This document shows positions 14,704-62,989 of a DNA stretch of 64,000 nucleotides, piece by piece (position 1 is the stretch's first letter; each line of letters opens with the position of its first letter). The notes under the pieces are model-generated. The model was not told the DNA's origin and did not search any database. It saw only the letters and a program-made list of their open reading frames with translations. The translations under genes and the position numbers were made by a program. The stretch spans positions 809,501 to 873,500 of the forward strand of contig CANLCX010000001.1 of NCBI GenBank assembly GCA_947489315.1, read 5' to 3'. The stretch is from an uncultured Sphingomonadaceae bacterium (GTDB lineage Bacteria; Pseudomonadota; Alphaproteobacteria; Sphingomonadales; Sphingomonadaceae).

Positions 14704-14711
14704 ACTTGTGT

Positions 14712-45464: not shown

Positions 45465-46058
45465 TTATTTTTCGCTGTCCGCTAAGATTGTCCACTTCCT
45501 ATAACGCGGCGCGACAGCGGAACATTTTTCTAGTTTTAGATCGCGTGACATGAAGGGACCTGCTGCACGGCTCTTTCCAGACACCGTCATGCAAACGCTA
45601 GGGCTATTCTTGGGATGAAATTCCGAACTAGCCGCATCATAAACAAACTGCTGGGCGATGGATTCAGAATCGCAATCAACTAGACCAAACGGAATAGCCG
45701 GATTGTCGGGGGCGACAATGGCGGCGCATTTATTCTCATATGCGGCCGATCGGATTTGTCCTGTGATGGCGCTGTAGCTAAAGCGCACGTCATCGCCGAC
45801 AGGCTTACAGCTATGGGCGTGCAACTGTTCTGAAAAGCCCCGTCCCAGCGTATCAATGCACCATCCCAATTTATCTTTCTCATCCAAATTATCTATCAAA
45901 TGAACAATGGGTGGCTTGGATTCGATTGTGGGCGCTTCAAAGGTCGATGATACGATAGCCTTCGCCCCGGAGATTGGGTTCGAAGCCGGTGAGCAAGCGG
46001 ACATGAAAGTTAGCAGAGCCACTGAGGTGAGCGCGGATCTAACGGTTAGCATAATCAC
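45465..46058 (-). CDS. Putative lipoprotein with ricin B-like (beta-trefoil) domain
   Basis: A protein of up to 197 residues. The signal peptide SALTSVALLTFMSAC ends in a lipobox Cys. The mature part has WCIDTLG, HSCK, NKCAA, LVDCDS, SVCMTVSG and EKCS spaced like repeats of a ricin B lectin, which suggests carbohydrate binding (moderate certainty). GTG 46058 shares four bases (GTGA) with the stop of the upstream membrane protein; ATG 46052 is the other choice. It is the last gene of the sulfatase/DoxX operon. The 257 bases after it (45208-45464) hold no clear gene. Confidence 0.65.
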   Translation of the reverse strand: MIMLTVRSALTSVALLTFMSACSPASNPISGAKAIVSSTFEAPTIESKPPIVHLIDNLDEKDKLGWCIDTLGRGFSEQLHAHSCKPVGDDVRFSYSAITGQIRSAAYENKCAAIVAPDNPAIPFGLVDCDSESIAQQFVYDAASSEFHPKNSPSVCMTVSGKSRAAGPFMSRDLKLEKCSAVAPRYRKWTILADSEK

Positions 46059-46483
46059 GGTGTTTCATTTGAAATCTTGCGGTGGGTTTGCAAGGTCAAA
46101 AATATATCCGAATTTCGGCATAAGAACAGACAGATGCAGGCCGCGAGCATCGGAATCGAGCCGAAATAGAGTAGCTGATGGATTTCATAGGGAGGAAGCA
46201 AACGCCAACTCGATGCAACTGTCGTGACGGAATGGAACAATAAAATGCCGCCATATGTAAGGGTTTTAAACAGACCCAATAAAAACGCCGCAACGAAAAT
46301 TAGTTCAGCAATCCCTAGAGCCAATAAAACTGGCTGGCTGATCTCGATATGATAATAATGACCGATCATTTTGCTGTTGTGAGAATAGTTGACAATTTTG
46401 TCGATCGTCCAAACCAGAAAGACTGTTGCGATACCTATTCTCAATGCAAACAGACCAATCTTCAGGCGTTTCTCATCTGTCAT
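46055..46483 (-). CDS. DoxX-like four-helix membrane protein
   Basis: This 142-residue protein has four hydrophobic segments (ALRIGIATVFLVWTIDKIV, LALGIAELIFVAAFLLGLF, and two more) in DoxX order. DoxX-like proteins are often found with periplasmic redox or sulfur metabolism genes, but their job is unknown. ATG 46483 overlaps the sulfatase stop (ATGA at 46480-46483), which fixes the start and indicates coupled translation. It in turn overlaps the ricin-like gene. Confidence 0.75.
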   Translation of the reverse strand: MTDEKRLKIGLFALRIGIATVFLVWTIDKIVNYSHNSKMIGHYYHIEISQPVLLALGIAELIFVAAFLLGLFKTLTYGGILLFHSVTTVASSWRLLPPYEIHQLLYFGSIPMLAACICLFLCRNSDIFLTLQTHRKISNETP

Positions 46484-47940
46484 TTTGGATCTTTCTTGTC
46501 CGCTTCGATCCATGGCGCTCGCGTTTCCGGAAGCCGAATATTATAGTCATAACTGCCGTCTTCTTTCTGAAAAATACTCTCCGGGCGCGGACCTGATTCA
46601 GCCATTGATTCAATGCCATCATATTGTGCCAAATGTACTGCCAGCTGTTTTGCAATTTTCGGAAGTTTGGCCGTGATGTCCGTTTTTTCCGTGGGATCAT
46701 CCACGATATTATAAAGGGCTGTGGTTGTGGTTGTTTCGAACCTTGGGGTGTGACGAACATATTTATAGGGCCACAAGAACACAGCTTTGGATTGCGGCCC
46801 GGCAATCGCGATGAGTTGCGGCGTGTAATTTTGGGCATTATTTTTGATCAACGGCCAATGGCTGACGCCGTCAAATTGGGCATCGGCATTGTCAATTCCC
46901 GCAGCCTCCAAAAGGGTCGGAGCCCAATTTTGAATGAAGACGGGCTCGTCAAGGACCTGATTGGGTGCGATATGGCCGCGCCAAGATATCAATGCCGGTG
47001 TCCTCAATCCGCCATCAAACCCGGCGCCCTTTCCACCTTTTAATGGCATGTTGCTCGACCCCAGTGGTTTGGCACCGCCGTTGTCGCTCATCAGAACAAT
47101 GAGAGTGTTCTCCATTAGACCCTTCACTTCCAACTTACTCACAAGCTGGCCGATATGGGAATCCAGATCAGTCATCATTTCGGCATAGACCCTGCGGTCC
47201 ATATCCGCGATTTCCGGATATGATTTTGCAACGCCGTCAATAAACTGCAGCGGTGTGTGGGGGGCATCATAAGCCATATAGAGGAAGAACGGATTATCCC
47301 CGTCATGTCGATCGAGCAGACCTTCAGCCTCTCTGGTTAAAAGCGCTGTGGTGTGTCCCTCTTCCCGTACTGGTTTCCCATTGCGTTGCCAATCGAGACC
47401 GCCGTTAAACACATGGGTATAATGATCGACCCATCCGTTGAGCAGCCCATAGGAATGATCAAAGCCACGCGCATTTGGCCGAGATGCCGCTTCTTTGTGT
47501 CCCAGATGCCATTTGCCAACGAGCCAGGTATCATATCCAGCAGATTTCAAGTGCTCTGGCAGTAAAGTGAGATCGAGGGGCAGGGTGCCGTCCAGGGCCA
47601 TGGGACTGTCGATCCCATATTTAAGCGGATTTTGGCCGGTCATCAAAGCGGCCCGGGTGGGACTGCAAATCGGAAATACGTATGAGCGTTCCAGTTTTAC
47701 CCCACTCTCTGCCAAGGCATCAATATTTGGCGTTGCTATTTCCGAGCCATGATAACCGACATCATTCCAGCCCACATCGTCGACAAGAATGAACAGGATG
47801 TTCGGCGGGGATTGCGCTGGTTTTGCAGCGTCCGTCTGTGCCGTACAGCCGGTTAGCGAAGCTAGAGCAACCGCCGCGCATAGGACTATGGTTGCGCGTG
47901 CTGACTGAATAAATTTTTGCACGTCTGTTTTTCCAATCAT
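46480..47940 (-). CDS. Periplasmic lipoprotein arylsulfatase (type I, Cys type), sulfatase 1
   Basis: A 486-residue sulfatase. The signal peptide ends in lipobox LTGC with Cys32. The metal pair Asp54-Asp55 is in FILVDDVGWND. Cys92 in CSPTRAALMTG is the residue converted to formylglycine. Further motifs are VGKWHLGH and VLMSDNGG. It cleaves sulfate esters of an organic compound in the periplasm. The start 47940 is 4 bases past the stop of the membrane reductase gene, so it continues that operon. A formylglycine-generating enzyme is encoded at the right edge of the window. Confidence 0.93.
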   Translation of the reverse strand: MIGKTDVQKFIQSARATIVLCAAVALASLTGCTAQTDAAKPAQSPPNILFILVDDVGWNDVGYHGSEIATPNIDALAESGVKLERSYVFPICSPTRAALMTGQNPLKYGIDSPMALDGTLPLDLTLLPEHLKSAGYDTWLVGKWHLGHKEAASRPNARGFDHSYGLLNGWVDHYTHVFNGGLDWQRNGKPVREEGHTTALLTREAEGLLDRHDGDNPFFLYMAYDAPHTPLQFIDGVAKSYPEIADMDRRVYAEMMTDLDSHIGQLVSKLEVKGLMENTLIVLMSDNGGAKPLGSSNMPLKGGKGAGFDGGLRTPALISWRGHIAPNQVLDEPVFIQNWAPTLLEAAGIDNADAQFDGVSHWPLIKNNAQNYTPQLIAIAGPQSKAVFLWPYKYVRHTPRFETTTTTALYNIVDDPTEKTDITAKLPKIAKQLAVHLAQYDGIESMAESGPRPESIFQKEDGSYDYNIRLPETRAPWIEADKKDPK

Positions 47941-47944
47941 GAAA

Positions 47945-49315
47945 TCAGTCAAATGAAAGTTGTTCGAATAAAATCTGACTCTCTGGGACGCCAATTTTAC
48001 GAAGATTGTCGGCTACCGCATCAACCATGACAGGCGGGCCGCAGACATAGAATATCCAAGCCTCCCGCTGGGCGGGAGTAAATTGTTCTGCCAACAGTTC
48101 TTTAGAAATATATCCGGTTTTCGCTTCAACCTGATCGTCTGGCTCTTCCAGAACGAGCGTCTGCTTGAAATCGAGCAACTTCTTCTCTGTCAATGCGATC
48201 TCGTCCTGAAAGACCATCTGATCATAGCGCCGGTTGCCGTAGATCAATCTGACCGGTCGTGATTCACCGAGATCATCTATTTGCCGCAAGATACCGAGGA
48301 TGGGACCGATGCCTGCCCCACCTGCAATCAACGCGATACCGCTCGCACTGCGTCCATTGAGAGTGAAAACGCCATGCGGACCATCAACAAAGACCCGCTG
48401 CCCCGGTTTTAATTGATCCAGATTAGAAGTGAAATCACCGAGTTCGCGGATGATAAACGATATTTGCGGCAAACTGGTTGGGCTAGAAGCGATTGAGAAA
48501 GGATGCTCGGTGCGGTTGAAAGGATTGCCGCTGGTATTGATCCACAGGAATTGCCCGGCATCAAATTCAAACGGAAAATTTCCATCCTTTTCAATGGTCA
48601 GCGACCAATCGCTCGCGCCTATTTTTTTGGCCTCAACCAAATTGAACGGGCGGCGCTTCTGGATAATGGGTCGATAAAAATAGGTATAGGCGACAATCCC
48701 GACAGCGATTGTGCAAAGGATGATCCACATGGCGTCGAAATACGCATTATACCGGCCATGACGCCCCACAGACACTGCATGATCGGTTCCCAATATGGCG
48801 ACGGCGACCAGCGCGATGCCGTGCGATATACGCCAGGATTCATAGCTGATTTTTAGCTTGTCCTTATACATCGACATCAGCACAAAAACGGTCATCAGTG
48901 CCCAAGCATATACGCCGGTCGACACTTCACCTGTGATGATTGACGACCACATGTCGCCGAGCGCCTTTTGCGGCGCGATGAAGAGGCGGGGTGCAACAAT
49001 AAGAACGGGGTGCAACAGGAAAAACAGCCCGACAATTTCACCAGCCTTGCGGTGAAGCAGCATGCCGTTATCGACGCCGGTATATTTGGTCAGCTTGTCG
49101 ATACGGCCAGACAACGGATATTGCGCCAGCAATGCTGCAAACATAGAAATGTTGAGTACAGTCAATAGAGTCGCATAGATGCCACGATACTCAAGGCCCT
49201 GCGTTGCTGACCAGATATAGGGTATCAGCGCCAGCAATATGTAACCAATCAACAGGCGGCCGAAAGTCAGCGGCGGTTGCCGGGTTGGTGGGAGAAGTGT
49301 TGAAGGAGTTGTCAT
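47945..49315 (-). CDS. Membrane NAD(P)H reductase with bis-heme ferric reductase domain
   Basis: A 456-residue protein. Six or so membrane segments carry two His pairs, His88/His102 and His165/His179, each 14 residues apart as in NOX/FRE/ferric reductases, for two b hemes. The cytoplasmic part has the FAD motif RTEHPFSIASSP, the nucleotide motif GGAGIGPILGILR and YVCGPPVMVDAV. It would carry electrons from NAD(P)H across the inner membrane. In this operon the likely acceptor is the Tat-exported flavoprotein with its ferredoxin (inference). ATG 49315 is preferred; a GTG at 49339 is also possible. Confidence 0.88.
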   Translation of the reverse strand: MTTPSTLLPPTRQPPLTFGRLLIGYILLALIPYIWSATQGLEYRGIYATLLTVLNISMFAALLAQYPLSGRIDKLTKYTGVDNGMLLHRKAGEIVGLFFLLHPVLIVAPRLFIAPQKALGDMWSSIITGEVSTGVYAWALMTVFVLMSMYKDKLKISYESWRISHGIALVAVAILGTDHAVSVGRHGRYNAYFDAMWIILCTIAVGIVAYTYFYRPIIQKRRPFNLVEAKKIGASDWSLTIEKDGNFPFEFDAGQFLWINTSGNPFNRTEHPFSIASSPTSLPQISFIIRELGDFTSNLDQLKPGQRVFVDGPHGVFTLNGRSASGIALIAGGAGIGPILGILRQIDDLGESRPVRLIYGNRRYDQMVFQDEIALTEKKLLDFKQTLVLEEPDDQVEAKTGYISKELLAEQFTPAQREAWIFYVCGPPVMVDAVADNLRKIGVPESQILFEQLSFD

Positions 49316-49367
49316 ATAAATGGCATCCAATTCTTGCACGTACCGGCATTGGCTTGCATGTTGATTG

Positions 49368-49583
49368 CTAGCCCCAGGAGACAGTGGGCATGAGCGCCTT
49401 GTCAGGTGTCAACGTGATGGCATCAACCGGGCAGCTTAGGCGGCACAAATGGCAAATCTGGCAATCATCCTGATAAGCAATATATGCCTGCGCAGAATCC
49501 GGGTCCATGCGGATGACATCGGTCGGACAAGCCTTGACGCAATTTTCGCATCCGATGCAGCCATGAATTTTTTCGATAGGCAT
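49368..49583 (-). CDS. Two-cluster [4Fe-4S] ferredoxin
   Basis: This 71-residue protein has two cluster motifs, CIGCENCVKACP at residues 8-19 and CQICHLCRLSCP at 41-52. It has no signal peptide. It sits 17 bases after the flavoprotein gene and before the membrane reductase gene. The pairing recalls AprA/AprB and FrdA/FrdB partners. If it works with the Tat-exported flavoprotein it may be carried out with it as a folded complex (inference). Confidence 0.93.
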   Translation of the reverse strand: MPIEKIHGCIGCENCVKACPTDVIRMDPDSAQAYIAYQDDCQICHLCRLSCPVDAITLTPDKALMPTVSWG

Positions 49584-49600
49584 ATTCTCTCCTCTGTGTC

Positions 49601-51466
49601 CTAAGCTTTCCCGGCGAGAAACTCTTCTTCACCAGGATAAGGTCGTGGATATCTCTCTCGATAGGGAACAGCCGGATCGGGGTGCCATTCCTTGGGGAAC
49701 ATATGTTTGGACAGGGTCATCTGGTTTTCTTGATCCTTATTGATCAGAACCCAGCAAAGCCATTCCGCATCGTTGCGGGCGGGATAATCTTCGCGAAAAT
49801 GCGTGCCGCGACTTTCGGTGCGGAAAATGCCAGCACGCAGTTTCATCTCTGCATTGAGCAACATATTGTCGGTCTCATGCGCCAGCCGCAATTCGTGTCC
49901 GTCCCGCGCAATCATTTTTGGCACTACGCTTTTCCTGAGATATTCAATCGAGGCCAGCGCTCCTTCAAGCCGCCGGGGTTCCTTGATGTAGAGAATGTGG
50001 AACGGCGTCATTGTATTGCGCAGGGTGTTGGTCACCCAATCAGGAGAGAAGCCTTGCTCATTGGCTCGTGGCGCCCACATCTCTGCGACCTTAGAATCGA
50101 GATATGCTTTGTCGAATTTCGGCATAGGGGCATTTTTCGCATATTCCGACGCAAAGCGCGCGGCGCGGCGCCCCTGAATTGCCGAACCATAGGATGAAAA
50201 ACCACGGCCCGGATAACTGGAACCACAAAGCATCGAACCCAAAGCATCGCCAGCCGCAAACAGCCCATCAACGCCGTCAGCCCGGCAAGTATAGTCGGAA
50301 TTAAAGACCCCTTCGCCCTTATGGACGCCCATGCCCGCTGTCGATCCGCCAACGCGGAAGCCTTGATCTTCGCCCGTCGAGCCTTCTGGCGGCCCGCCAA
50401 AATCAAGAATCAAACCTTCGGTCTTGAGGAAGCCCTTACCGCGATATTTTTCATTTGCGATGGCGTCCGGTGGAGGTTTTCGTGGCCCTTTTGGAGGTGA
50501 TTCACCGCCCGGTCCCGCGCCCGGATCGCGGTTGATATTCCCTGTCGAAACGCGAAGGGCAGCTTCAACAGTTAGCCCGCCCACAACCGGATCAGGTGGA
50601 CCGACCATGATGTAAGCACCCGTAACGGTTTGCGCCCAGACCCATTGATCATAGGACGCCGCCGGAATTTTCGACAATGCAAGATGGGTGTCATGATATT
50701 CTTTGCCCGTGATCGTCGCCCCGGCCCGGTAGGCCATGGCATCCCCATCAAAGGTGTTGCCCCAGTTTGGAAAGCCTGGGCTTTTGTAGCCTCCAGCTCC
50801 CGAGCACATGATCACAGCCTTGCCCTTGCAGACAATCGCCTTGCTTGGCTCAATGCTATCATCAAAGGTGAAGCCGAGAACACCTCCAACCTTTCCTTTT
50901 GAGTCCTTCAAAAGACTGGTCACCATTGTGCGTTCGACCAAGGTAACTTCATTATCTTCCATTAATCCGCGAAACACGCCGGAACGCTCGAATGGCTTGG
51001 TTTTATGTGCGCCCCAATCTCTAAGTATTTGGTAGATTTCGAGCGACTCATCCAGGAAGATGTCGAGCCATTTGCGGTCATTGACCCATTCGGTATTGGT
51101 CGCCACATTATGATGCCACTCAGCGCGATCATAAATTTCCGGATCAAAAGGCCGACTGTCAGAGGCCCATGGGGAGAGGCCGGACCACCCCACCGTGCCT
51201 TTGTCCACCATCACCACGCTCAAGCCATTTTTTCGAGCCTCCATGGCTGCAAAAATGCCTGCAAACCCGGTTCCAATGATAACAAGATCAGCCTCATAGG
51301 CGTCCTTCATCGCCGTCTTCATTGTATTGACGCCGACATTGTTCAGGACCGTTGGGACTGCCAGCGTTGCAGCGGTGATGGCTCCAATTTTTGCTACATC
51401 ACGCCGGGTCACGCCAGATTTATGGCCTGGCTTGTCTTGTTGCCCTTTGTCCTGATCATCACTCAT
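49601..51466 (-). CDS. Tat-exported FAD-dependent oxidoreductase (fumarate reductase/AprA-like)
   Basis: A 621-residue flavoprotein. The N-terminus has a twin-arginine motif (TRRDVAK, Arg21-Arg22) and a hydrophobic stretch AITAATLAVPTV. FAD binding is seen in ADLVIIGTGFAGIFAAMEAR at about 59-78, TFDGDAMAYRAGA and DGLFAAGDALGS. It belongs to the FrdA/SdhA/AprA superfamily, but the substrate is unknown. A Pro/Gly-rich insert of about 30 residues (near residue 312-340) is unusual. ATG 51466 is inside the end of the small lipoprotein gene (8-bp overlap). With the ferredoxin and membrane reductase it forms a likely periplasmic reductase. Confidence 0.88.
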   Translation of the reverse strand: MSDDQDKGQQDKPGHKSGVTRRDVAKIGAITAATLAVPTVLNNVGVNTMKTAMKDAYEADLVIIGTGFAGIFAAMEARKNGLSVVMVDKGTVGWSGLSPWASDSRPFDPEIYDRAEWHHNVATNTEWVNDRKWLDIFLDESLEIYQILRDWGAHKTKPFERSGVFRGLMEDNEVTLVERTMVTSLLKDSKGKVGGVLGFTFDDSIEPSKAIVCKGKAVIMCSGAGGYKSPGFPNWGNTFDGDAMAYRAGATITGKEYHDTHLALSKIPAASYDQWVWAQTVTGAYIMVGPPDPVVGGLTVEAALRVSTGNINRDPGAGPGGESPPKGPRKPPPDAIANEKYRGKGFLKTEGLILDFGGPPEGSTGEDQGFRVGGSTAGMGVHKGEGVFNSDYTCRADGVDGLFAAGDALGSMLCGSSYPGRGFSSYGSAIQGRRAARFASEYAKNAPMPKFDKAYLDSKVAEMWAPRANEQGFSPDWVTNTLRNTMTPFHILYIKEPRRLEGALASIEYLRKSVVPKMIARDGHELRLAHETDNMLLNAEMKLRAGIFRTESRGTHFREDYPARNDAEWLCWVLINKDQENQMTLSKHMFPKEWHPDPAVPYRERYPRPYPGEEEFLAGKA

Positions 51467-51674
51467 GTTCACCGCCCGATTTATTCTGTTCAACTGGCTG
51501 CGTTGATTTAATCTGAGTTTCCGGGCCACCTGGCTCAGGGCTATTTTCCGGTTCCATTGGAGGCTCATATTCTAATGAAGAGCGACCATCATTTCCATCG
51601 AGCACGGGATATTCAGGCGTCATATCACATCCGCAAAGAGCGATGAAAAATAATGCCAGAACACTTGCTTTCAA
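51459..51674 (-). CDS. Small Pro/Glu-rich lipoprotein
   Basis: About 71 residues: a lipoprotein signal KASVLALFFIALCGC with the lipobox Cys, then a polar tail rich in Pro, Glu and Gly (EYEPPMEPENSPEPGGPE). No ATG is in frame. TTG 51674 lies 9 bases after GGGAG and is the best start. The end overlaps the flavoprotein start by 8 bases, which argues strongly that it is a real, coupled gene. It may anchor or dock the periplasmic flavoprotein (inference). Confidence 0.6.
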   Translation of the reverse strand: MKASVLALFFIALCGCDMTPEYPVLDGNDGRSSLEYEPPMEPENSPEPGGPETQIKSTQPVEQNKSGGEHE

Positions 51675-51703
51675 AACATCCAACTCCCGAACTTTTATTA
51701 CCC

Positions 51704-51733
51704 ATAATACGATACAATATGAGCATATTGCAA
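51704..51733 (-). promoter_or_regulatory. Promoter with embedded palindrome for the flavoprotein/ferredoxin/reductase operon
   Basis: On the minus strand, TTGCAA (51728-51733) and TATTAT (51704-51709) are 18 bases apart, a good sigma-70-like pair. The spacer is overlapped by CAATATG-AG-CATATTG (51715-51730), a perfect 7+7 inverted repeat. The sequence ATACAATA occurs at 51712 and again at 51733, 21 bases (two helical turns) apart. A repressor bound here would block the promoter. Confidence 0.5.
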
Positions 51734-51810: not shown

Positions 51811-53511
51811 TCATCGTTCCGGTGGAGTGCTGCCTAAAATAACGCCATTATCTTCGGTATAGGCTTGCCACTTTGCCACAAGGTTTGCCAGAATATCGGG
51901 ATGCTTTTTGGCAAGATCTTTTGTTTCGCCTGGGTCGATGGAAGTATCAAACAACTGCCACTCATCTGGCCCGAATGGCGCGTGAAGATGGAGGGCTTTC
52001 CATTTGCCGCTGCGATAGCCCTTCTTGTTAAAAAGCTCGAGGGCAATGCCGTCGCCCTTTGCCCTGACCTTTTCGGTCTTGCCTGTCAGCATGGATGCCC
52101 AGGAAAGGCCTTGTATTGGATGGACAGTCCGTCCCTTATATTCGCCCTTATGTTTCGGAACGCCTGCTAGCTCCAATATGGTTGGGGTAATATCCATAAC
52201 CGATGTGACGCTGGTATTTGTGTTGCGCTTGGTTTTGAGACCGCCAAAATTGACAATTGCTGGCACATGGACACCGCCATCGCTCGCCATGCCTTTGTAC
52301 AACCGAAATGGCGTCATGCTGACCTGTGCCCAACGTTCTTCATAATAAACGTAAGACCCGGCGGCTCCTATATTATCATAGCTGTTGTCGAAGCTATCCA
52401 TCCATTTCTTGAAGTTCGGTATCTTATGCAGCGGAGCGCCTTCCGCGCCATTGTCAGACATGAAGACAATCATCGTGTTTTCATACTGTCCGCTTTCTTT
52501 CAGATAATTGATCAATTTACCGATCTGCTGATCAAGATGGTCAATCATCGCTGCATAGATTTCCATCTTCTTGGCTTCGGTACGCCGTTCATCATCGGTC
52601 AAAGCAGACCAATCCGGGCTGTAGGTAAAAATCGGATGTGTAACGGTTGTTGCTGGCAACAGCTTGGCTGCAACCAATTTCGACCGGCGCTCTTCCTGGA
52701 CGGCTTCCCAGCCCTTGTCATAGACGCCTTTATATTTGACAATATCGGCTTTTGGCGCCTGAAGCGGCCAATGCGGTGCTGTGTAGGCAAGATAGGCGAA
52801 GAACGGTTTGCCGCTGTCCCGCTCTTCTTCCAGATAACTGATCATCTTGCGTGTGTAGAAATCGGTGGAATAGCCAAAGTCGGGCGGCAAATCGACGACC
52901 ACACCATTTTCCCGATAGCGCGCGGGGTCAGATCTGCCGTTTAATCCTCTCTGATCAAAATGACTCGCACCTCCATTTAACAACATGAAGGATTTCTCAA
53001 ATCCGCGAGCAGCAGGAGATGTCTCATCTGTCATGCCGAGGTGCCATTTTCCAGCCGCATAGGTGCGATAGCCTGCATCGCGCAACATTACCGGAAGCGT
53101 CACAACGCGATCATTTAGAAAACCTTCATAGCCGGGCTGATCGACTTGATTGGGCGCGATATGTTCAATCATATTGCCTAAGCCTGCCCGGTGGTGATCA
53201 ACACCTGTAAGGAGCATGGCTCTTGTGGGAGAGCAGGTTCCGCCAGAATAGAAATTGGTGAGTAGTAGCCCTTTGCGCGCAAGCTCATCAAGGTTGGGCG
53301 TTTCAATTTCGCTACCGGTTATCCCGAGATCGGAAAATCCAAGATCGTCAGCGACGATGATTAGGAAGTTGGGGCGTTCTTGCTCGGTTTGCGAAACTAC
53401 TTCAAGTTCTGGAGAGGCTTTATTGGTCGCGTTGCAACTCGAAAGGATCGTTGCCACTCCGATAAGCTGCAATGCAAGTCTTGATAAGGTAGAGTGCGAA
53501 CGAACCAACAA
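51811..53511 (-). CDS. Periplasmic lipoprotein arylsulfatase (type I, Cys type), sulfatase 2
   Basis: A 566-residue sulfatase with lipobox LSSC (Cys26), metal residues Asp55-Asp56 in IIVADDLGFSD, and Cys93 in CSPTRAMLLTG as the formylglycine precursor. AAGKWHLGM and VFMSDNGAEG are the other family motifs. It is larger than sulfatase 1, as in AtsA-like arylsulfatases with a C-terminal extension. The start is a TTG placed 5 bases after GGGGAGG, so initiation should be efficient. It follows the TonB receptor gene, with a hairpin between. Confidence 0.93.
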   Translation of the reverse strand: MLVRSHSTLSRLALQLIGVATILSSCNATNKASPELEVVSQTEQERPNFLIIVADDLGFSDLGITGSEIETPNLDELARKGLLLTNFYSGGTCSPTRAMLLTGVDHHRAGLGNMIEHIAPNQVDQPGYEGFLNDRVVTLPVMLRDAGYRTYAAGKWHLGMTDETSPAARGFEKSFMLLNGGASHFDQRGLNGRSDPARYRENGVVVDLPPDFGYSTDFYTRKMISYLEEERDSGKPFFAYLAYTAPHWPLQAPKADIVKYKGVYDKGWEAVQEERRSKLVAAKLLPATTVTHPIFTYSPDWSALTDDERRTEAKKMEIYAAMIDHLDQQIGKLINYLKESGQYENTMIVFMSDNGAEGAPLHKIPNFKKWMDSFDNSYDNIGAAGSYVYYEERWAQVSMTPFRLYKGMASDGGVHVPAIVNFGGLKTKRNTNTSVTSVMDITPTILELAGVPKHKGEYKGRTVHPIQGLSWASMLTGKTEKVRAKGDGIALELFNKKGYRSGKWKALHLHAPFGPDEWQLFDTSIDPGETKDLAKKHPDILANLVAKWQAYTEDNGVILGSTPPER

Positions 53512-53584: not shown

Positions 53585-55927
53585 CTAGAATTTTGCGCCA
53601 AAAGTGACTCCATATGTAGCCGGCGCTCCAACATTTATGGTTCTGCAACCACAACTAAATGGCGGATTGATCAATTGCCCGGTGACATATTCCTTGTCGA
53701 AAATATTCCGACCGAACAGATCCACATACCACTCCTCGGCATCAAACCGGAGACGAGCGTTCACTAAGCTATAGGCTTCTTGTGTGTCCAAATCTGTATT
53801 GGCTCGATCAAAGAATGTATCGGATTTATAAGACCAATCGACGCGCGCGACGAGGTTGTTGTCACCCACCGGAGCTGTATATTCAGCACCAATATGAGCG
53901 GTCCATTTCGGCGCATAATTTAAGCGGTTTCCGGAGAAATCAGTCGGTGGGATATCGATCGTATATTCATCATATGTCGCATCAAGATAACCAAATGATG
54001 CATCCAGATTAAATCTGTCGGATGGAGAAAAAACAAACTCCCCTTCAATGCCCCAAATGGTCGATTGTGCCGCATTGTCGGTCAATGGGCCAAAGGCAGT
54101 CAATCTGAATACCTGAAGATCCTTATAGTCATAATGGAATCCAGTCAGATTGAGCAGCACCGCTCCATCGAAAAATTTGTTTTTCGATCCAACTTCAATC
54201 GCGTTGACAAATTCCGGGTTGTACGCGACCTGTTCACCCGCAGAATCAATCTGCCCACCGTTAAAGTCAAATCCGCCGGACTTATAACCTCTCGAATAAC
54301 TCGCAAAAAGCAGATTATCATCGGTAATTTTATAGTCGGCAGTCAACCTGTAGGTAAATTCTGAGAAGCTGGTCGAACCGCTATCCGGGGCAAGGGGACC
54401 CGTGGCACCGCCGCCCCTAAACCGAAAATTATTGGTCAAATCCACAAGCCCACCGGTCGCCCGTGATTGGGATTTATCATCCCAAGTGTGGCGGATACCA
54501 CCGGTAATGGTGAAGCGATCGGTAATTTCATATGAGAGCTGTGCAAATAATGCATAGGAATCAACGGTGTGGCTCGTGCTTCTAAACTGTCTAGTGCCAC
54601 CGCCGCCGGGCACCGCTCCGGGAGGAAGCGGAAAGGTTACAGGCAACAAGCCTGCGGGCGTCAAGGTTTCGAATTCTTCGGTTAGCTCTTCATGATAATA
54701 ATAGGCACCCAAGATCCACTGAAAAGGAGATTCGGACTGCGAAATCAGGTTAAATTCTTGGCTAAACTGTTTCGCTCGATTTTCCCGCTGCCGTGTTTCA
54801 ATCGGTAGCTCCGAACCATCTGCGTCAACGAGAATTTCGTTGTTGTTGGTTTGATAAGAGCTAAGTGATTTAAAGAGGATGTCATCGGACAAACTAAAGC
54901 TCGCGTCGAGATCAACTCCCTTGATCACCTGATCCAGAAATTCGGGCGCATCTTTTCTTACTTGATGAAGATCGGTAGGAAGCGGCAATACTGATGCACC
55001 AGCTGTGGTTGTGACATTATTGTACAAATCGGTAACAATAGGCGCCCCAGCCGGAGGGGCTGGTCCCCCAGAAATTCCTACAAGATAACCGGGCGCATAG
55101 CCGTTCGCCGTCGAAATATCTCTACCCAGGTATCGGCTACCCGGTCCGACACCTCCATATTTGTTTATATATCCGCGTAGCAATATTTCATTTCCGGAAT
55201 CGGACTTCCACAATAGTTGCAGTCGCGCGCCCTGCGTATCTTTATCATCGGGGTCGCGGGCATTTTCGACAAGATTGTCGATATAACCGTCGTGAGAGTC
55301 GGAATACATTGTGAGGCGCGCGCTAATATTGTCGCTTACCGGTACGTTTATCGCGCCGCGCAAGCGCAGGGCGTTGTAATTGCCATAGGTAGCATCCACA
55401 AAACCTTCAAATTCATCCTGTGGCTTTTTCGTGATAATATTTATCGAACCACCCGTCGCATTCCGGCCATAAAGGGTGCCCTGCGGTCCACGTAGAACTT
55501 CCAGCCGTTCAACATCAAATATGTCACCGGCAGCAGCTGAGTTACGACCAACATATACCCCGTCAATGTGGAGTGCCACACCCGGATCACCCCCGCCAAC
55601 AAGAGTTTCTGTTCCGACACCACGTAATGTTACTCGCGCAACATTTTGACCTGCCGACTGTACTGAGAAGTTCAGGTTGGGAGTCGATTCCTGTGCCCCG
55701 GCTACGTTAGAATAGCCTTTCTTATCCAAATCATCCTGAGAAAATGCGGTCACCGAACCCGCTACATCTTGCAAATCTTGTTCGCGCTTGTTCGCGGTGA
55801 CGACAATTACATTGTCATCCCTCTGGTTCGCTTGCTCGCCAGCACCGTCCTGTGCATGCGCAGCAACCCCCGGCAATGCCGAAGTAGTGGCCAATAGACT
55901 CAATAATATCTTTTTTGAATTTAGCAT
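53585..55927 (-). CDS. TonB-dependent outer membrane receptor
   Basis: A 780-residue receptor. After a signal peptide (LLSLLATTSALPGVAAHA) come a TonB box-like DNVIVVTA, the plug domain (about 50-165, VTLRGVG, LEVLRGPQGTLYGRNATGG), and a 22-strand barrel ending TFGAKF with the terminal Phe. Such receptors in Sphingomonadales import bulky organic compounds as well as iron chelates. Its neighbours (sulfatases and a catabolic operon) point to a sulfated organic substrate rather than iron. The gene has its own upstream region with a candidate operator. Confidence 0.93.
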   Translation of the reverse strand: MLNSKKILLSLLATTSALPGVAAHAQDGAGEQANQRDDNVIVVTANKREQDLQDVAGSVTAFSQDDLDKKGYSNVAGAQESTPNLNFSVQSAGQNVARVTLRGVGTETLVGGGDPGVALHIDGVYVGRNSAAAGDIFDVERLEVLRGPQGTLYGRNATGGSINIITKKPQDEFEGFVDATYGNYNALRLRGAINVPVSDNISARLTMYSDSHDGYIDNLVENARDPDDKDTQGARLQLLWKSDSGNEILLRGYINKYGGVGPGSRYLGRDISTANGYAPGYLVGISGGPAPPAGAPIVTDLYNNVTTTAGASVLPLPTDLHQVRKDAPEFLDQVIKGVDLDASFSLSDDILFKSLSSYQTNNNEILVDADGSELPIETRQRENRAKQFSQEFNLISQSESPFQWILGAYYYHEELTEEFETLTPAGLLPVTFPLPPGAVPGGGGTRQFRSTSHTVDSYALFAQLSYEITDRFTITGGIRHTWDDKSQSRATGGLVDLTNNFRFRGGGATGPLAPDSGSTSFSEFTYRLTADYKITDDNLLFASYSRGYKSGGFDFNGGQIDSAGEQVAYNPEFVNAIEVGSKNKFFDGAVLLNLTGFHYDYKDLQVFRLTAFGPLTDNAAQSTIWGIEGEFVFSPSDRFNLDASFGYLDATYDEYTIDIPPTDFSGNRLNYAPKWTAHIGAEYTAPVGDNNLVARVDWSYKSDTFFDRANTDLDTQEAYSLVNARLRFDAEEWYVDLFGRNIFDKEYVTGQLINPPFSCGCRTINVGAPATYGVTFGAKF

Positions 55928-56291: not shown

Positions 56292-56942
56292 TCATGTTGT
56301 GTAGTTTGCAGGTGTGCAGGCGGCGATATCGGCTTCGGAAACATCTGGCGCGCGTTCAATCAATTGGAACGGACTATCATGATCAATGCGCTGGAACACA
56401 CACAGATTTGTAATGATCATATCGACGCTATTAGCACCAGTTAAAGGCAATGTGCATTCGGGAATGAATTTCGGTTCGCCGCTTTTGCTAGTGTGGTCCA
56501 TTACAACGATGATTTTCTTCACGCCGGCAACCAAGTCCATGGCGCCGCCCATGCCCTTGATCATCTTGCCCGGGATCATCCAGTTTGCAATGTCGCCATT
56601 TTCGCTAATCTCCATCGCGCCGAGCACGGAGAGATCAATATGACCGCCGCGTATCATGGCGAAGCTTTGATCGGAACCAAAATAAGCTGATTGTGGCAAC
56701 TCACTGATCGTCTGCTTTCCAGCATTGATGAGGTCTGCATCTACTTGATCATCATAGGGAAAGGGACCAATTCCCAGCATCCCATTTTCCGATTGCAAAG
56801 TGACTTCCACACCATCCGGAATATGATTGGCAACCAGCGTTGGAATACCAATGCCGAGATTCACATAAAAACCGTCTTGCAATTCCTGTGCTGCCCGGGC
56901 CGCCATCTGATTGCGATCCCAGCCCTTTGGTGCATCCGTCAT
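56292..56942 (-). CDS. 3-oxoacid CoA-transferase subunit B
   Basis: A 216-residue subunit with the active-site Glu in [13 protein letters not shown] and the family opening [22 protein letters not shown]. With subunit A it moves CoA from succinyl-CoA or a similar donor to a 3-oxoacid such as acetoacetate. Start and the subunit A stop share a base (TAATG at 56940-56944). Last gene of the pathway operon. Acetoacetate is exactly the product expected from the BKACE enzyme encoded upstream. Confidence 0.93.
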
Positions 56943-57649
56943 TATGCGCTCTCCCGTTCCCGCGTCATGCGAAACTCAATGTGCTTTTCATACGGCGCGC
57001 CGCAGATGAGGCGTTTTACATAGATGCTAGGAATATGGATCTGGTCGGGATCAATGCTTCCTACCGGCACAATTTCTTCCACTTCTGCAACCGTCATATA
57101 GCTGGAAGTAGCCATGGGCTCATTAAAGTTTCGAGCGGTTTTTCGGAAAATCAGGTTGCCAGCCTCATCGGCTTTCCAGCCTTTGATGATAGAAAGATCA
57201 GCAAATATGGCGCGTTCCAAAATATAGTCTTCACCGTCGAAATTTTTGGTTTCCTTGCCATCGGCAACCTGCGTGCCAACGCCCGTCTTGGTGTAGAAAC
57301 CGGGGATGCCCGCACCGCCTGCTCGGCAGCGTTCGGCAAGCGTACCCTGCGGACAAAACTCGACTTCCAATTCACCGCTTAGATATTGCCGCTCGAACTC
57401 CTTGTTCTCGCCAACATAGGAGGAGATCATTTTCTTCACCTGTCGACTGCGCAATAGTTTCCCAAGGCCAACACCATCGATGCCGGCATTGTTGGATGCA
57501 ATGGTGAGGTCTTTAACGCCCGAAGCTTCTATCGCGTCAATCAATCTTTCGGGCATGCCGGACAAGCCAAAGCCGCCGCAGCAAATTGTCATGCCATCAT
57601 GCAAAACGCCGTCCAACGCAGCAACGGCGTCAGTGAATGTCTTTTTCAC
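56942..57649 (-). CDS. 3-oxoacid CoA-transferase subunit A
   Basis: This 235-residue protein matches subunit A of succinyl-CoA:3-ketoacid or related CoA-transferases: [60 protein letters not shown] and [17 protein letters not shown]. The start is a GTG at 57649, 28 bases after the BKACE stop. It forms a heteromer with the subunit B encoded next. Confidence 0.93.
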
Positions 57650-57677: not shown

Positions 57678-58604
57678 TCAAAAATTGACCCGGTCACCGC
57701 CTTTAAGGGCAAGAAGCTCGCGTGCTTCTGTTGGCGTTGCTGGTTCAAGGTTCATTTCCGCAAGAATCCTGACAATCTTGGCGACCTGTTCCGCATTTGA
57801 ACTGGCAAGCTTGCCCGGCCCAATCGAAAGGCTGTCTTCCAAGCCAACCCGGACATTGCCGCCTAACATTGCTGCTTGTGTGATAACGGGCATTTGGTGA
57901 CGGCCTGCTCCCAGTGCAGACCAGATATAGTCCTTGCCAAACAGGCGGTCAGCAGTTCGGCGCATGAACACCACATTGTCGAGATCAGGACCGATGCCTC
58001 CCAACAGACCAAAAATACTCTGAATGAAGAAAGGCGGTTTAGCGATCCCTTTGTCTACGAAATGGGCGAGATTATAAAGATGCCCGATGTCATAACATTC
58101 ATGTTCAAACCGCGTCCCATGATCGGCGAGCAATTCATAATTGCGGGCGATGTCGGCAAATGTATTGCGGAAAATGAACTTTTCGCTGTCCGCTATATAT
58201 TGCTTTTCCCACGGGAATTTCCATTCGGTGACTTTTCCGCCCATGCCGTGAAAAGCGAAGTTCATGCTACCCATATTCAGGGAACACATTTCGGGTGAGA
58301 ATGCCAGCGCAGCGGCAAGGCGATCTTCAGGCTCCATATCGGGGCTGCCACCCGTCGTGATATTCACCACGGCATCGGTGCTTTGTTTGATGACAGGCAA
58401 AAACTGGTTGTAAACGTCGGGGCTGCCAGTGGGAGCGCCTGTTTCAGGATCGCGCGCATGCAAATGAAGGATGGAAGCACCCGCTTCAGCAGCTTCAATG
58501 GCTTGATGCGCTATATCGGCCGGCTTATATGGCAGTGCATCGGAGAGCGTTGGCGTATGTATACCCCCGGTAATGGCGCATGTGATGACGACTTTGTTTT
58601 TCAT
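57678..58604 (-). CDS. Beta-keto acid cleavage enzyme (BKACE, DUF849)
   Basis: A 308-residue zinc-dependent TIM barrel. KVVITCAITGGIHTPTLSD is the family opening, and His47 and His49 in ILHLHARDPETGAPTG are the zinc ligands. BKACE enzymes react a beta-keto acid with acetyl-CoA to give acetoacetate and a new acyl-CoA; known members act on 3-keto-5-aminohexanoate or dehydrocarnitine. The substrate here is unknown. ATG 58604 overlaps the MFS stop (ATGA) and has GGAAAGG upstream, so the longer frame to 58646 is not used. The adjoining CoA-transferase can use the acetoacetate. Confidence 0.93.
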   Translation of the reverse strand: MKNKVVITCAITGGIHTPTLSDALPYKPADIAHQAIEAAEAGASILHLHARDPETGAPTGSPDVYNQFLPVIKQSTDAVVNITTGGSPDMEPEDRLAAALAFSPEMCSLNMGSMNFAFHGMGGKVTEWKFPWEKQYIADSEKFIFRNTFADIARNYELLADHGTRFEHECYDIGHLYNLAHFVDKGIAKPPFFIQSIFGLLGGIGPDLDNVVFMRRTADRLFGKDYIWSALGAGRHQMPVITQAAMLGGNVRVGLEDSLSIGPGKLASSNAEQVAKIVRILAEMNLEPATPTEARELLALKGGDRVNF

Positions 58605-59803
58605 GAAGATACCTTTCCAGGATGAGTTTCTTTGAGCCCCAAACAAAGAACAACGCCGACGGCCATCATGATGATCGGCATCCAGAGAATTTGATCAATT
58701 CCAAAATTTTGGGCAATCTGACCGCCGATAATGGGGGCCAATCCTCCGCCCAGTATTTCGCCTGCCGCGATAACCATTCCCGATGCAGTGGTCATAAGTG
58801 CCACGGGAACAGTCTCGGTGGCGATTGGACCGACAGTCATTGTGATAAGCGCGTTATTACAAAAATGGATGAGGAAAAGCACGGCGAACAATGCTGGCAC
58901 GCTGGGTCCAATTGAACCCAGCATCATCAATCCGATAAGTGCTCCAACCGAGCCGATTAGCATCACGGGTTTTCTGCCTATCTTGTCCGATAATGTAGCC
59001 AAGATGATCGTGCCGGTCATGGCACCAAAGCCAATCGACGACATAATGCCTCCCATCTCAAGGTCGCTCATTTTTAGATGATCAACAAGATAGCTTGGCA
59101 TAAAAGCGCTGGTGATGATCAGGCAGGTTAGCCAGCAGAACATTCCGCCCATCAAAATCCAGATGTTGCGATGTTGCAAGACGGCCTTCCAGTCATCCAT
59201 GCTAGTTGTTTCTTTTACCCTTTTGGTTGCTTCCGGGATGATACGCCATGTTGCCCAGGCAATAAGCAGCCCGGGGATAGTGAAGATCAGGAAAATATAG
59301 CGCCAATCGACGCCTTCACGCAGCAGAAAGCCAACCAGCAATGGCGAAAGACCAAGTCCGAAAAGCACCAACATTGTTTGCTGGAATCCCACGTTGCGAC
59401 CATGTCGTTCTGGCGGCGATGCATTGACGGTGGCGGCTATACTGGCGGGCGTGAATGCTCCATCAGCGAACCCCATAACCACCCTAACGAGCAGCAATCC
59501 GCCAAGACCCGCAGCGAGGCCGCTGCCACCAATTAGCAGTGAAAATACAATCAAAGAACCCACCAATACGCGCCGCTGACCGATGCGATCAGAGAGGTTC
59601 CCCATGATCAACGCGGCGACGCCCCAGGCAAGCGCCAAAGCTCCCGTTATCGTTCCAATATCACCATAATCCAGTCCGAGATCCTTCGCTATCGTCGGAT
59701 ACATGGTGGAAATGAGAAAACGGTCTATGCCCACAAGGCCAAAACCAAGTGACAATATGGTGACTGCTTTTATTTCTTTCGACGTCACAGGATTTTTGCT
59801 CAT
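58601..59803 (-). CDS. MFS transporter of the catabolic operon
   Basis: A 400-residue carrier with twelve membrane segments. GNLSDRIGQRRVLVGSL is MFS motif A and LSDKIGRKPVMLIGS its repeat in the second half. It resembles carriers for carboxylates and aromatic acids. It overlaps its neighbours by 4 bases on both sides (ATGA), so it is firmly part of the pathway operon and is the likely importer of the desulfated acid into the cytoplasm (inference). Confidence 0.9.
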   Translation of the reverse strand: MSKNPVTSKEIKAVTILSLGFGLVGIDRFLISTMYPTIAKDLGLDYGDIGTITGALALAWGVAALIMGNLSDRIGQRRVLVGSLIVFSLLIGGSGLAAGLGGLLLVRVVMGFADGAFTPASIAATVNASPPERHGRNVGFQQTMLVLFGLGLSPLLVGFLLREGVDWRYIFLIFTIPGLLIAWATWRIIPEATKRVKETTSMDDWKAVLQHRNIWILMGGMFCWLTCLIITSAFMPSYLVDHLKMSDLEMGGIMSSIGFGAMTGTIILATLSDKIGRKPVMLIGSVGALIGLMMLGSIGPSVPALFAVLFLIHFCNNALITMTVGPIATETVPVALMTTASGMVIAAGEILGGGLAPIIGGQIAQNFGIDQILWMPIIMMAVGVVLCLGLKETHPGKVSS

Positions 59804-60714
59804 GCCTTCGCCCTCTCATTTTGCGCTTTGACGAGATGCTCAAAAAGATCACCGCGAAGAGTCGCCATTTCACCTTCCGACCATGACCTGAAGCCTTCTC
59901 CGGATTTAAAGCCCAGTTTTCCAGCGTTGATTTGTTCTTCAAGGAACGGGTTCGGCCCGCTGCTGGTATCAAGTTCCGGCATAATCGTGCGATGGATATC
60001 CAGCGTTAAATCCAGTCCCACTAAATCTGCATTTTCAAGCGGGCCCAAAACCGGAAGGCGCAATCCGAAGCTGTTTTTGACACAATCGTCGAGCGTTTGT
60101 GCATCACAGACTCCTTCCGCAACCATGGCAATGGCTTCCCGCCATAGGGCATGTTGCAAGCGGTTTGCCACGAAACCGGGTACATCCTTTTTCACATGTG
60201 CTGGTTTTTTACCGATGTCGGTGAGGATTGACATTGTAGTGCTGATTGTATCGTCGGACGTTTGCTCGCCTTGAATAACCTCCACAAGAGGAATAAGCAC
60301 GGCCGGATTCCACCAATGGGTTCCAACGATACGATCAGCAGTTTCGAGCCCTTCGGCAATACTGCCAATGGGCATGACCGATGAGTTGCTGGCCAAAATG
60401 CATGAACGCGGCGCTTTGGCAACCAGATCGGCAAACATGTTTCGCTTAAGGTCAAGACGCTCGGGAATGGCCTCGGTCACGAAATCGGCTTGTCCAATCG
60501 CTTCGGCCAAGTCCGCCGTAGCAGTAATATTGGCCGACGCAGATGCGTCTGCTCCAATCCGCACCAAGTCTGCTTCTATTCGCTCAACTAGGGTCTTTCG
60601 AACTTCGTCAAATGGTTCAAAAACGCAAACTTCGTAGTTAGCAGCAGCAAATGTCTGAGCAATTCCGGCACCCATCAGGCCTCCGCCAATTACCGAGATG
60701 CGTTCATTACCCAT
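59800..60714 (-). CDS. 3-hydroxyacyl-CoA / hydroxy-acid dehydrogenase
   Basis: A 304-residue enzyme of the 3-hydroxyacyl-CoA dehydrogenase family. The NAD-binding motif is VIGGGLMGAGIAQTF; THWWNPAVLIPLVEV carries the catalytic His region, and DVPGFVANRLQHALWREA starts the C-terminal domain. The WWNP form, in place of FFNP, is found in lambda-crystallin-like branches acting on free hydroxy acids as well as CoA esters. It probably makes the beta-keto acid for BKACE. ATG 60714 has AGGA 7 bases upstream and is preferred over 60741. Confidence 0.9.
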   Translation of the reverse strand: MGNERISVIGGGLMGAGIAQTFAAANYEVCVFEPFDEVRKTLVERIEADLVRIGADASASANITATADLAEAIGQADFVTEAIPERLDLKRNMFADLVAKAPRSCILASNSSVMPIGSIAEGLETADRIVGTHWWNPAVLIPLVEVIQGEQTSDDTISTTMSILTDIGKKPAHVKKDVPGFVANRLQHALWREAIAMVAEGVCDAQTLDDCVKNSFGLRLPVLGPLENADLVGLDLTLDIHRTIMPELDTSSGPNPFLEEQINAGKLGFKSGEGFRSWSEGEMATLRGDLFEHLVKAQNERAKA

Positions 60715-60718
60715 GATC

Positions 60719-61519
60719 TTATCCTGCTGTGTATCCGCCATCGGCGTAGATGATGTGACCAGTATGGAAGTCTGACGCCCGGGAGCACAGGAACAGCAAA
60801 GGACCAGCCAGATCTTCCGGCTCCCCTAAGCGGCCAATTGGAACACGCGATAAAAACCCAGCGCGCACAGCTTTGGCGTCATCATTATCCTCAAACATCC
60901 AAGCGGTAACGGGTGATCGGAAGACCGTCGGAGCGATTGCATTGACTGTGATATCATATTTGCCCCATTCACAGCCCAATGCCTTAGTCATCCCATCTAC
61001 CGCCGATTTTGATGTGCAATAAGCGGAATAGCCAGCAGGATGCCCGAGTTTGCCTCGCGCTGAAGACGTGAAAACGACTTTACCGCCCGTAGCCTGCTTG
61101 ATCATCTGCGCTCCTGCCGCACGGGCAATCAGCCATGCGCCATCAACATTGGCAAGCATCACTTTGCTAAAGCGCTCCGGCGACATTTCCGTGATTGGGG
61201 AAACATCGTTGGTTCCAGATGCGACAACCAAAATATCAACACTGCCATAGGCTTCCAAAGCCGCAGCAATAATCGCGTTACAATCTTCTTCGGAATTTGG
61301 CCTCTTATTAACGGACACAGCTGAAACTCCCGCCGCCTCCAGTTCGGCCTGCAACGTGGCAAGACTTTCTGCATTGCCCGCTGTAACGGTTAACTTCGCT
61401 CCGGCATTGCCGAGTGTTGCACACACCACTTGCCCAAAAGCACCGGTTGCACCGATCACAACAGCGGACTTTCCGGCTATGTCAAACAAGCCCATCGGAT
61501 TAATTGCAGGTAAGGTCAT
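60719..61519 (-). CDS. Short-chain dehydrogenase/reductase (SDR)
   Basis: This 266-residue classical SDR has the cofactor motif GATGAFGQVVCATLG, catalytic Ser in VFTSSARG and Tyr/Lys in YSAYCTSK. It would oxidise or reduce an alcohol/ketone of the pathway substrate with NAD(P). Its start overlaps the cupin stop (ATGA at 61516-61519), and the next gene starts 4 bases after it ends. Substrate unknown. Confidence 0.92.
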   Translation of the reverse strand: MTLPAINPMGLFDIAGKSAVVIGATGAFGQVVCATLGNAGAKLTVTAGNAESLATLQAELEAAGVSAVSVNKRPNSEEDCNAIIAAALEAYGSVDILVVASGTNDVSPITEMSPERFSKVMLANVDGAWLIARAAGAQMIKQATGGKVVFTSSARGKLGHPAGYSAYCTSKSAVDGMTKALGCEWGKYDITVNAIAPTVFRSPVTAWMFEDNDDAKAVRAGFLSRVPIGRLGEPEDLAGPLLFLCSRASDFHTGHIIYADGGYTAG

Positions 61520-62959: not shown

Positions 62960-62989
62960 TAAATAAACATATTAATGAGACAAGTGAAC

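What the first reader, a model, noticed from the sequence alone, without database searches (positions are those of the whole stretch)
49368..51733. Periplasmic reductase module: Tat flavoprotein, ferredoxin, small lipoprotein and bis-heme NAD(P)H reductase beside sulfatases
Four consecutive minus-strand genes encode a small lipoprotein (51459), a twin-arginine FrdA/AprA-like flavoprotein (49601), a two-cluster ferredoxin (49368) and a membrane reductase (47945). The reductase has two His-x13-His pairs plus FAD and NAD(P)H motifs. Seen: the Tat motif, cluster Cys, heme His and the gene overlaps. Known: ferric-reductase-like proteins move electrons from cytoplasmic NAD(P)H through hemes to the outside. 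Inferred: the set is a self-contained electron path feeding an exported flavoenzyme that reduces the desulfated or sulfated substrate. I know of no described system with this composition beside sulfatases.
Basis: partly seen in the sequence, partly recalled or inferred. Interest (0 to 1): 0.8.

Follow-up and report, generated by a model that had tools for sequence, protein, structure and literature searches.

The report
Periplasmic reductase for sulfated phloroglucinol polyphenols
A bacterium carries a gene set that appears to take up sulfated plant or algal polyphenols, strip the sulfate, reduce them outside the cytoplasm with electrons from inside the cell, and feed the product into a known phloroglucinol-degrading pathway; the reducing part looks undescribed.

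Summary
In detail: a Tat flavoprotein, two-cluster ferredoxin and bis-heme NAD(P)H reductase, with a small lipoprotein, lie between the genome's only two strong sulfatases. Flavoprotein, ferredoxin and heme protein form a family spread over many phyla, for which I found no description. The window's clade is monophyletic (100/100) and mixes alpha- and gammaproteobacteria. The pathway's cyclase is in 12 of 14 of its genomes, against 4 of 396 in the order; strong sulfatases are in 13 of 14, but also in 188 of 366 of the order, so the phloroglucinol link is the more specific. A cytoplasmic version with another NAD(P)H donor sits beside the same kind of pathway in a Vibrio. Best reading: NAD(P)H electrons cross two hemes and a hitch-hiking ferredoxin to a flavoenzyme that reduces a phloroglucinol-type polyphenol in the periplasm. 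Substrate and reaction are inferred. The lipoprotein is not a conserved part.

The parts
49601..51466 (-). Tat-exported AprA/FrdA-fold FAD protein (catalytic subunit, inferred)
49368..49583 (-). 2x[4Fe-4S] ferredoxin without a signal peptide (inferred Tat hitch-hiker)
47945..49339 (-). bis-heme ferric-reductase-like membrane protein fused to FAD/NAD(P)H domains (GTG start at 49339 or ATG at 49315)
51459..51677 (-). small acidic lipoprotein (lipobox by eye); no homologue found by phmmer, a similar frame in place in G293 by eye
46480..47940 (-). sulfatase A, CSPTR formylglycine motif and lipoprotein signal by eye
51811..53511 (-). sulfatase B, CSPTR motif and lipoprotein signal by eye
53585..55927 (-). 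TonB-dependent receptor
46055..46513 (-). DoxX/MauE-like membrane protein (Pfam scores below cut-off); in 5 genomes of the clade
45465..46058 (-). ricin-B-lectin-domain protein (also in G293)
56292..56942 (-). CoA transferase subunit
56942..57649 (-). CoA transferase subunit
57678..58646 (-). beta-keto acid cleavage enzyme (triacetate acetoacetate-lyase by context)
58601..59803 (-). MFS transporter
59800..60741 (-). 3HCDH-family dehydrogenase (3-hydroxy-5-oxohexanoate dehydrogenase by context)
60719..61519 (-). SDR, phloroglucinol reductase candidate; best PDB chain 5g4k
61519..61863 (-). cupin, conserved with the pathway
61891..62760 (-). PF04199 cyclase, dihydrophloroglucinol cyclohydrolase (DPGC) candidate; Trp-x-Tyr motif
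62975..63790 (+). IclR regulator
63903..64000 (-). 3' end of FGE-type sulfatase maturase (match continues past the window to about 64685)

Best explanation
The locus is a utilisation locus for sulfated phloroglucinol-type polyphenols, for example phloroglucinol or phlorotannin sulfates of brown algae. A TonB receptor brings the compound to the periplasm, and two exported sulfatases, matured by the nearby FGE, remove sulfate. NAD(P)H electrons enter the FAD/NAD domain of the membrane protein on the cytoplasmic side, cross by two hemes, pass to the ferredoxin (exported in complex with the Tat flavoprotein) and reach FAD. The flavoprotein reduces the polyphenol, so that the MFS carrier and the cytoplasmic pathway (phloroglucinol reductase, DPGC, dehydrogenase, lyase, CoA transferase) can use it. 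My guess at the chemistry is loss of an aryloxy, hydroxyl or halogen group alpha to a carbonyl in the keto tautomer of the ring, or enone reduction. Shown by sequence: the parts, their order, conservation and co-occurrence. Inferred: place of the ferredoxin, direction of electron flow, substrate and reaction.
For: The adjacent operon matches the published phloroglucinol gene set (PMC10470551, abstract and passages). The window cyclase holds the Trp-x-Tyr pair (CWPYF) that the paper gives for DPGC. In the order the flavoprotein is in 3 of 396 genomes and DPGC in 4 of 396, all 3 included. DPGC is in 12 of 14 genomes of the window's clade, and in all 12 the cyclase, SDR, 3HCDH and BKACE lie together, against 3 of 16 hand-picked genomes of other clades. 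Three class-level core clusters without the flavoprotein show no sulfatase, TonB or flavoprotein match in the stretches fetched. In a Vibrio (L048) a separate, Tat-less lineage of the flavoprotein, with ferredoxin motifs fused to a GltD-like NAD(P)H reductase, lies beside cyclase, SDR, 3HCDH and CoA transferases, with no sulfatase match in the locus. Donors vary while flavoprotein and ferredoxin stay, which suits a reductase. TatA/TatC genes sit beside the Ilyobacter version. Phloroglucinol and phlorotannin sulfates are reported in brown seaweeds (PMC12432060, passages).
Against: No substrate or activity is known. Cohaesibacter G401 and the Lysobacterales MAG G407 gave no DPGC match. In G397, G398, G399, G403 and G404 the pathway lies apart from the module, on another contig; in G397 and G404 it has a TonB gene of its own. 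In the Vibrio-like Reinekea genome flavoprotein and pathway are also apart. Most of the wider family has no window-type cyclase near it, so the family chemistry may be broader. The three order genomes are one family and may reflect one transfer. Sulfatases are common in the order (188 of 366), so that they are near is weaker evidence than it looks, although direct flanking on both sides is not explained by frequency alone.
Confidence: 0.57

Rival explanations
1. The module is a general extracytoplasmic quinone or oxidised-polyphenol reductase that protects the cell or keeps substrates reduced, and not a catabolic step.
For: Bis-heme donors resemble MsrQ-like proteins; the wider family mostly occurs without the window's pathway genes nearby.
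Against: In the window's clade it is inherited with TonB, sulfatase and often the pathway in one run of genes.
Confidence: 0.15
2. The flavoenzyme acts on sulfur: it reduces a sulfate ester, sulfite or an APS-like compound linked to the sulfatases.
For: AprA-like C-terminal half, hhalign probability 99.6; a sulfatase near in 11 of 16 clade genomes; 13 of 14 clade genomes hold a strong sulfatase somewhere; in G398 one lies about 13.5 kb from DPGC.
Against: Sulfatases are in half of the order while DPGC is rare. No sulfatase match near the Vibrio L048 version. AprA segments MENRFTPARF and GSHSG are not kept in the family; 52 bits against an AprA cut-off of 641.75.
Confidence: 0.11
3. The module is a respiratory terminal reductase for an external acceptor, and the neighbouring pathway is a coincidence.
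For: Secreted FrdA-like flavoproteins are known to respire external acceptors (PMC8238504, passages); many relatives are from groups with anaerobic life styles (names; life styles from general knowledge).
Against: Linkage to a catabolic operon; direct NAD(P)H feeding in the fused form would conserve little energy (general knowledge).
Confidence: 0.11
4. The module works in the oxidative direction, as a periplasmic dehydrogenase that returns electrons to quinone or NAD(P)+.
For: Heme-only relatives could pass electrons to quinone.
Against: The fused NAD(P)H domain and the GltD-like donor in Vibrio are normally electron inputs.
Confidence: 0.05

Closest known systems
Anaerobic phloroglucinol pathway of Clostridium scatologenes (PMC10470551; abstract and passages seen)
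   Same: SDR reductase, PF04199 cyclase, 3HCDH, BKACE, CoA transferase, transporter and regulator; Trp/Tyr pair of DPGC; the paper already reports the cluster in marine alpha- and gammaproteobacteria
   Different: The words sulfatase, TonB, flavoprotein and periplasm do not occur in its main text
Cgr1/Cgr2 cardiac glycoside reductase of Eggerthella lenta (PMC5953540; passages seen)
   Same: Tat-predicted FrdA-like flavoprotein that needs FAD and [4Fe-4S], with a membrane heme protein proposed as donor, reducing a plant compound
   Different: Cluster lies within Cgr2 and the donor is NapC/NrfH-like; here a separate two-cluster ferredoxin and a ferric-reductase-type protein fused to an NAD(P)H domain
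MsrQ-like transmembrane systems (PMC8238504; passages seen)
   Same: PF01794 membrane protein, often with a C-terminal NAD domain, serving extracytoplasmic redox
   Different: [quoted passage not shown] here a ferredoxin and a Tat flavoprotein
Signal-less ferredoxin exported with a Tat-dependent hydrogenase, and ferredoxin plus b-type cytochrome pairs (PMC10924467; passages seen)
   Same: Precedent for a ferredoxin without a signal carried by a Tat partner
   Different: Those ferredoxins are tail-anchored; the one here is not
AprAB APS reductase
   Same: Flavoprotein plus two-cluster ferredoxin subunit; shared C-terminal region
   Different: AprA segments absent, far below cut-offs; AprAB is cytoplasmic (general knowledge)

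Membership tests
Phloroglucinol degradation pathway | Co-located SDR, PF04199 cyclase, 3HCDH and BKACE | tested here: met
Phloroglucinol degradation pathway | DPGC Trp20/Tyr22 pair | tested here: met
   met in the window and in the 12 of 20 listed cyclase frames where the DLSH anchor was found (some are the same gene twice); the other 8 were not read
Phloroglucinol degradation pathway | Activities on phloroglucinol and its products | not testable with these tools
   needs assays
AprA APS reductase | NCBIfam aprA cut-off | tested here: not met
   52 bits against 641.75
AprA APS reductase | AprA active-site segments (residue roles recalled) | tested here: not met
   alignment with three usable AprA rows; a fourth (L116) was a wrong frame
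FrdA/SdhA | Pocket His and capping-domain Arg (roles recalled) | tested here: not met
   H261 lines up with the SdhA His, but no Arg between 260 and 540 is invariant or nearly so; the place of the second His depends on the alignment
FrdA/SdhA/AprA fold | Fold | tested here: met
   AlphaFold2 pLDDT 84.6; the 50 Foldseek rows shown are SdhA, FrdA, AprA, PAPS reductase or L-aspartate oxidase entries at 14-20% identity
Ferric-reductase-domain NAD(P)H oxidoreductase | Two conserved His pairs plus FAD and NAD domains | tested here: met
Tat-exported protein | Conserved RR signal | tested here: met
   export itself not tested
Cgr2-type reductase | Reduction of a plant compound | not testable with these tools
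   no assay

The most novel reading that the evidence does not exclude
A family of extracytoplasmic flavoprotein-ferredoxin reductases with exchangeable electron donors, spread over many phyla, whose window clade performs a new periplasmic reductive unlocking of sulfated phlorotannin-type polyphenols (ether cleavage, dehydroxylation or dehalogenation): a polyphenol counterpart of a polysaccharide utilisation locus with its own transmembrane power supply.
Probability: 0.3. Interest if true: 0.87.

Novelty: new variant of a known kind. Interest (0 to 1): 0.72.

Why it matters
Brown-algal polyphenols are a large carbon pool (general knowledge), and my searches found no account of how bacteria open the sulfated ones. 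This locus names testable genes for uptake, desulfation, reduction and ring cleavage in one run. The flavoprotein-ferredoxin-heme family is widespread and I found no description of it, so solving one member would help assign function in many genomes.

Tried and rejected
Lipoprotein as a module part: rejected. Fumarate or APS as substrate: judged unlikely on cut-offs and alignment; residue roles are recalled. Flavonoid entry through phloretin hydrolase: PF18089 matched 0 of 14 genomes, but it rang in no control either, so this shows nothing. Recurrent neighbours of the wider family (CotH, Lcl_C, EF-hand, GGDEF, histidine kinase) gave no substrate clue. That 5g4k is a phloroglucinol reductase is recalled; one search did not confirm it. 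I first meant to argue that the module follows the phloroglucinol pathway more than sulfatases by comparing genome counts with neighbour counts; that was not like with like, so I measured the sulfatase background. Like with like: at genome level sulfatase 13 of 14 against 188 of 366, DPGC 12 of 14 against 4 of 396; as neighbours, sulfatase in 11 of 16 genomes, DPGC on the same contig in 7 of 14. Literature listings: no paper with 5 of 6 terms, none with all six, and in the listings no title or abstract start that describes the module; these do not prove absence. VIA-align was not available. hhalign in Python printed nothing and was replaced by protein comparison. The second structure job was not used.
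Full report
OBSERVATION. The flavoprotein has an N-terminal FAD motif and a FrdA-type C-terminal domain, the ferredoxin two 4Fe-4S motifs, the reductase a ferric-reductase membrane domain with FAD and NAD domains. Both His-x13-His pairs are present and kept in 57, 58, 58 and 58 of 58 relatives. Lipoprotein and flavoprotein genes overlap by 8 nt. Of 61 NCBIfam models matched by the flavoprotein, none of the 25 shown reaches its cut-off; the best has 143.3 bits against 587.

SURROUNDINGS. A minus-strand run goes from a cyclase at 62760 down to a ricin-lectin protein at 45465: cyclase, cupin, SDR, 3HCDH, MFS, BKACE, two CoA-transferase subunits, TonB receptor, sulfatase B, lipoprotein, flavoprotein, ferredoxin, reductase, sulfatase A, DoxX-like protein, lectin; an IclR gene faces it. 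An FGE-type sulfatase maturase lies across the window's end (E 1.8e-68). The genome has six PF00884 matches; only two are strong (1.2e-64, 4.8e-57; the next 3.3e-16) and both flank the module. In G293 the two matches at E 1e-40 or better also flank it.

PATHWAY. SDR, PF04199 cyclase, 3HCDH and BKACE form the gene set shown for phloroglucinol degradation in Clostridium scatologenes (PMC10470551; abstract and passages seen). That paper already notes the cluster in marine alpha- and gammaproteobacteria. The window cyclase reads DLSHPWGLGQPCWPYF, which fits the Trp/Tyr pair that the paper gives for DPGC. The SDR's best solved chain is 5g4k, E 9.4e-54; I recall it as a phloroglucinol reductase, but the listing calls it only an SDR and one search did not confirm it.

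FAMILY. A scan of genome contigs with seven aligned flavoproteins gave 193 relatives, of which the best 80 were kept. Ferredoxin is within 2 kb in 74 of 84; of the other ten, L012 has it further off and L048 has it fused. A heme protein is within 2.5 kb in 57 of 84, long enough for an NAD domain in 20; both partners are near in 54 of 84. An RR Tat signal was scored in 70 of 89 flavoprotein ORFs, at least two of them spurious. Other donors occur: in Ilyobacter an FMN-binding protein that looks NapH-like to me, with TatA and TatC genes; in Vibrio L048 a GltD-like NAD(P)H reductase fused to ferredoxin motifs, next to a flavoprotein without Tat signal. Paracoccus L013 has a heme-only protein and sulfatases nearby.

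CLADE OF THE WINDOW. It is monophyletic (100/100) and mixes alpha- and gammaproteobacteria; window and G293 group with SAR92 and Robiginitomaculum sequences, though that fork is weaker (95/64). This suggests transfer. A sulfatase is near in 11 of 16 genomes: window, G293, L014, L015, L019, L021, L023, L024, L025, L026, L027, against 6 of 68 loci outside the clade. Not seen near in L016, L017, L018, L020, L022; several loci, L018 and L026 among them, are cut by contig ends.

CO-OCCURRENCE. In the order the flavoprotein is in 3 of 396 genomes (E 1e-30) and DPGC in 4 of 396 (E 1e-60), all three flavoprotein genomes included. Leaving out the own genome, the chance that both other carriers fall among three DPGC genomes of 395 is about 4e-5 (hand arithmetic, kinship ignored). 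In the class it is 1 of 385 (E 1e-80) and 4 of 385 (E 1e-50), so the pathway also lives without the module. Of 14 clade genomes searched 12 hold DPGC at 63-100% identity; G401 and G407 do not; L016 was not held and L026 not asked. In all 12 the cyclase, SDR, 3HCDH and BKACE are together. Of 16 genomes picked by hand from the other clades, 3 hold DPGC. The comparison with sulfatases: 13 of the same 14 genomes hold one at E 1e-40 (not G401), but so do 188 of 366 genomes of the order. DPGC is thus the more specific companion, while sulfatases are the more frequent neighbour. Module and DPGC share a contig in 7 genomes (window, G293, G144, L014, L021, L024, L025) and not in G397, G398, G399, G403, G404. 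In G397 and G404 the pathway has a TonB gene beside it; in G398 a sulfatase lies about 13.5 kb from it. Three class-level core clusters from genomes without the flavoprotein (L121, L122, L123; L122 cut by its contig end) show no match to the window's sulfatases, TonB or flavoprotein. The DPGC genome G014 of the order, without the flavoprotein, was not inspected.

SECOND LINEAGE. In Vibrio L048 the Tat-less flavoprotein, of another branch than the window's, lies beside cyclase, SDR, 3HCDH, two CoA-transferase genes, a thiolase and a BKACE fragment at the locus edge, with no sulfatase match. In Reinekea the same flavoprotein type and the same kind of pathway cluster are on different contigs. This is independent support for a tie to phloroglucinol-type compounds.

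STRUCTURE AND ACTIVE SITE. AlphaFold2 gave pLDDT 84.6 and pTM 0.86; the first 50 residues are of low confidence. Foldseek places the model near SdhA, AprA and FrdA at 14-20% identity. Profile comparison gives probability 99.6 to AprA and 98.9 to SdhA. H261 (57 of 57) lines up with the SdhA pocket His. K228, K255, D259, K383 and Y418 are invariant; H382 is in 52 of 57; R421 in 14 of 57. The capping region is Gly/Pro-rich and variable, without a conserved Arg. Fumarate or APS chemistry is therefore unlikely; the roles of the known residues are recalled.

MECHANISM. Electrons most likely go NAD(P)H, FAD, heme, heme, ferredoxin, FAD, substrate. The ferredoxin has no signal, so I infer export in complex with the Tat flavoprotein; a signal-less ferredoxin exported with a Tat-dependent hydrogenase is proposed in PMC10924467 (passages). 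The substrate is inferred from the neighbouring pathway; phloroglucinol and phlorotannin sulfates are reported in brown seaweeds (PMC12432060, passages). A secreted FrdA-like reductase of a plant compound with FAD, [4Fe-4S] and a heme donor has a precedent in Cgr1/Cgr2 (PMC5953540, passages). The reaction itself is a guess.

VERDICT. Pathway, sulfatases and TonB are known kinds; the periplasmic flavoprotein-ferredoxin-heme reductase joined to them is a new variant that I did not find described in the listings.

Noticed in passing
L012 (Ilyobacter polytropus plasmid) 6443-14738: TatA/TatC/TatA genes beside ferredoxin, three flavoproteins of this family and an FMN-binding protein; only the third flavoprotein has an RR signal.
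   Followed up: partly
L048 8328-9989 (similar frame at L062 8290-9954): Ferredoxin motifs at both ends of a GltD-like NAD(P)H oxidoreductase next to a Tat-less flavoprotein of this family; in L048 beside a phloroglucinol-type cluster. L062 was judged by length, place and the neighbour clustering, not scanned itself.
   Followed up: partly
L046, L049, L060, L061, L064, L076, L084, L092 and others: In Bacteroidota and some other loci the heme-only version recurs near CotH kinase, Lcl_C, EF-hand and small Gly/Pro-rich proteins (one representative of each scanned); function unknown.
   Followed up: partly
L013 11002-22467: Paracoccus plasmid: ferredoxin, heme-only membrane protein and Tat flavoprotein with a patatin and two sulfatases nearby, outside the window's clade.
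   Followed up: no
window 45465-46513: DoxX-like membrane protein and ricin-lectin protein at the sulfatase A end of the run; both recur in G293, and DoxX in 5 genomes of the clade.
   Followed up: partly
window 40270-44574: CrtC/lipocalin-type protein with a MacB/FtsX permease and an ABC ATPase-like frame: an export-like operon.
   Followed up: no
L128 9848-11507: Two adjacent DPGC-like cyclase frames in the Desulfopila genome, which also carries a family flavoprotein; one match has a stop inside.
   Followed up: no
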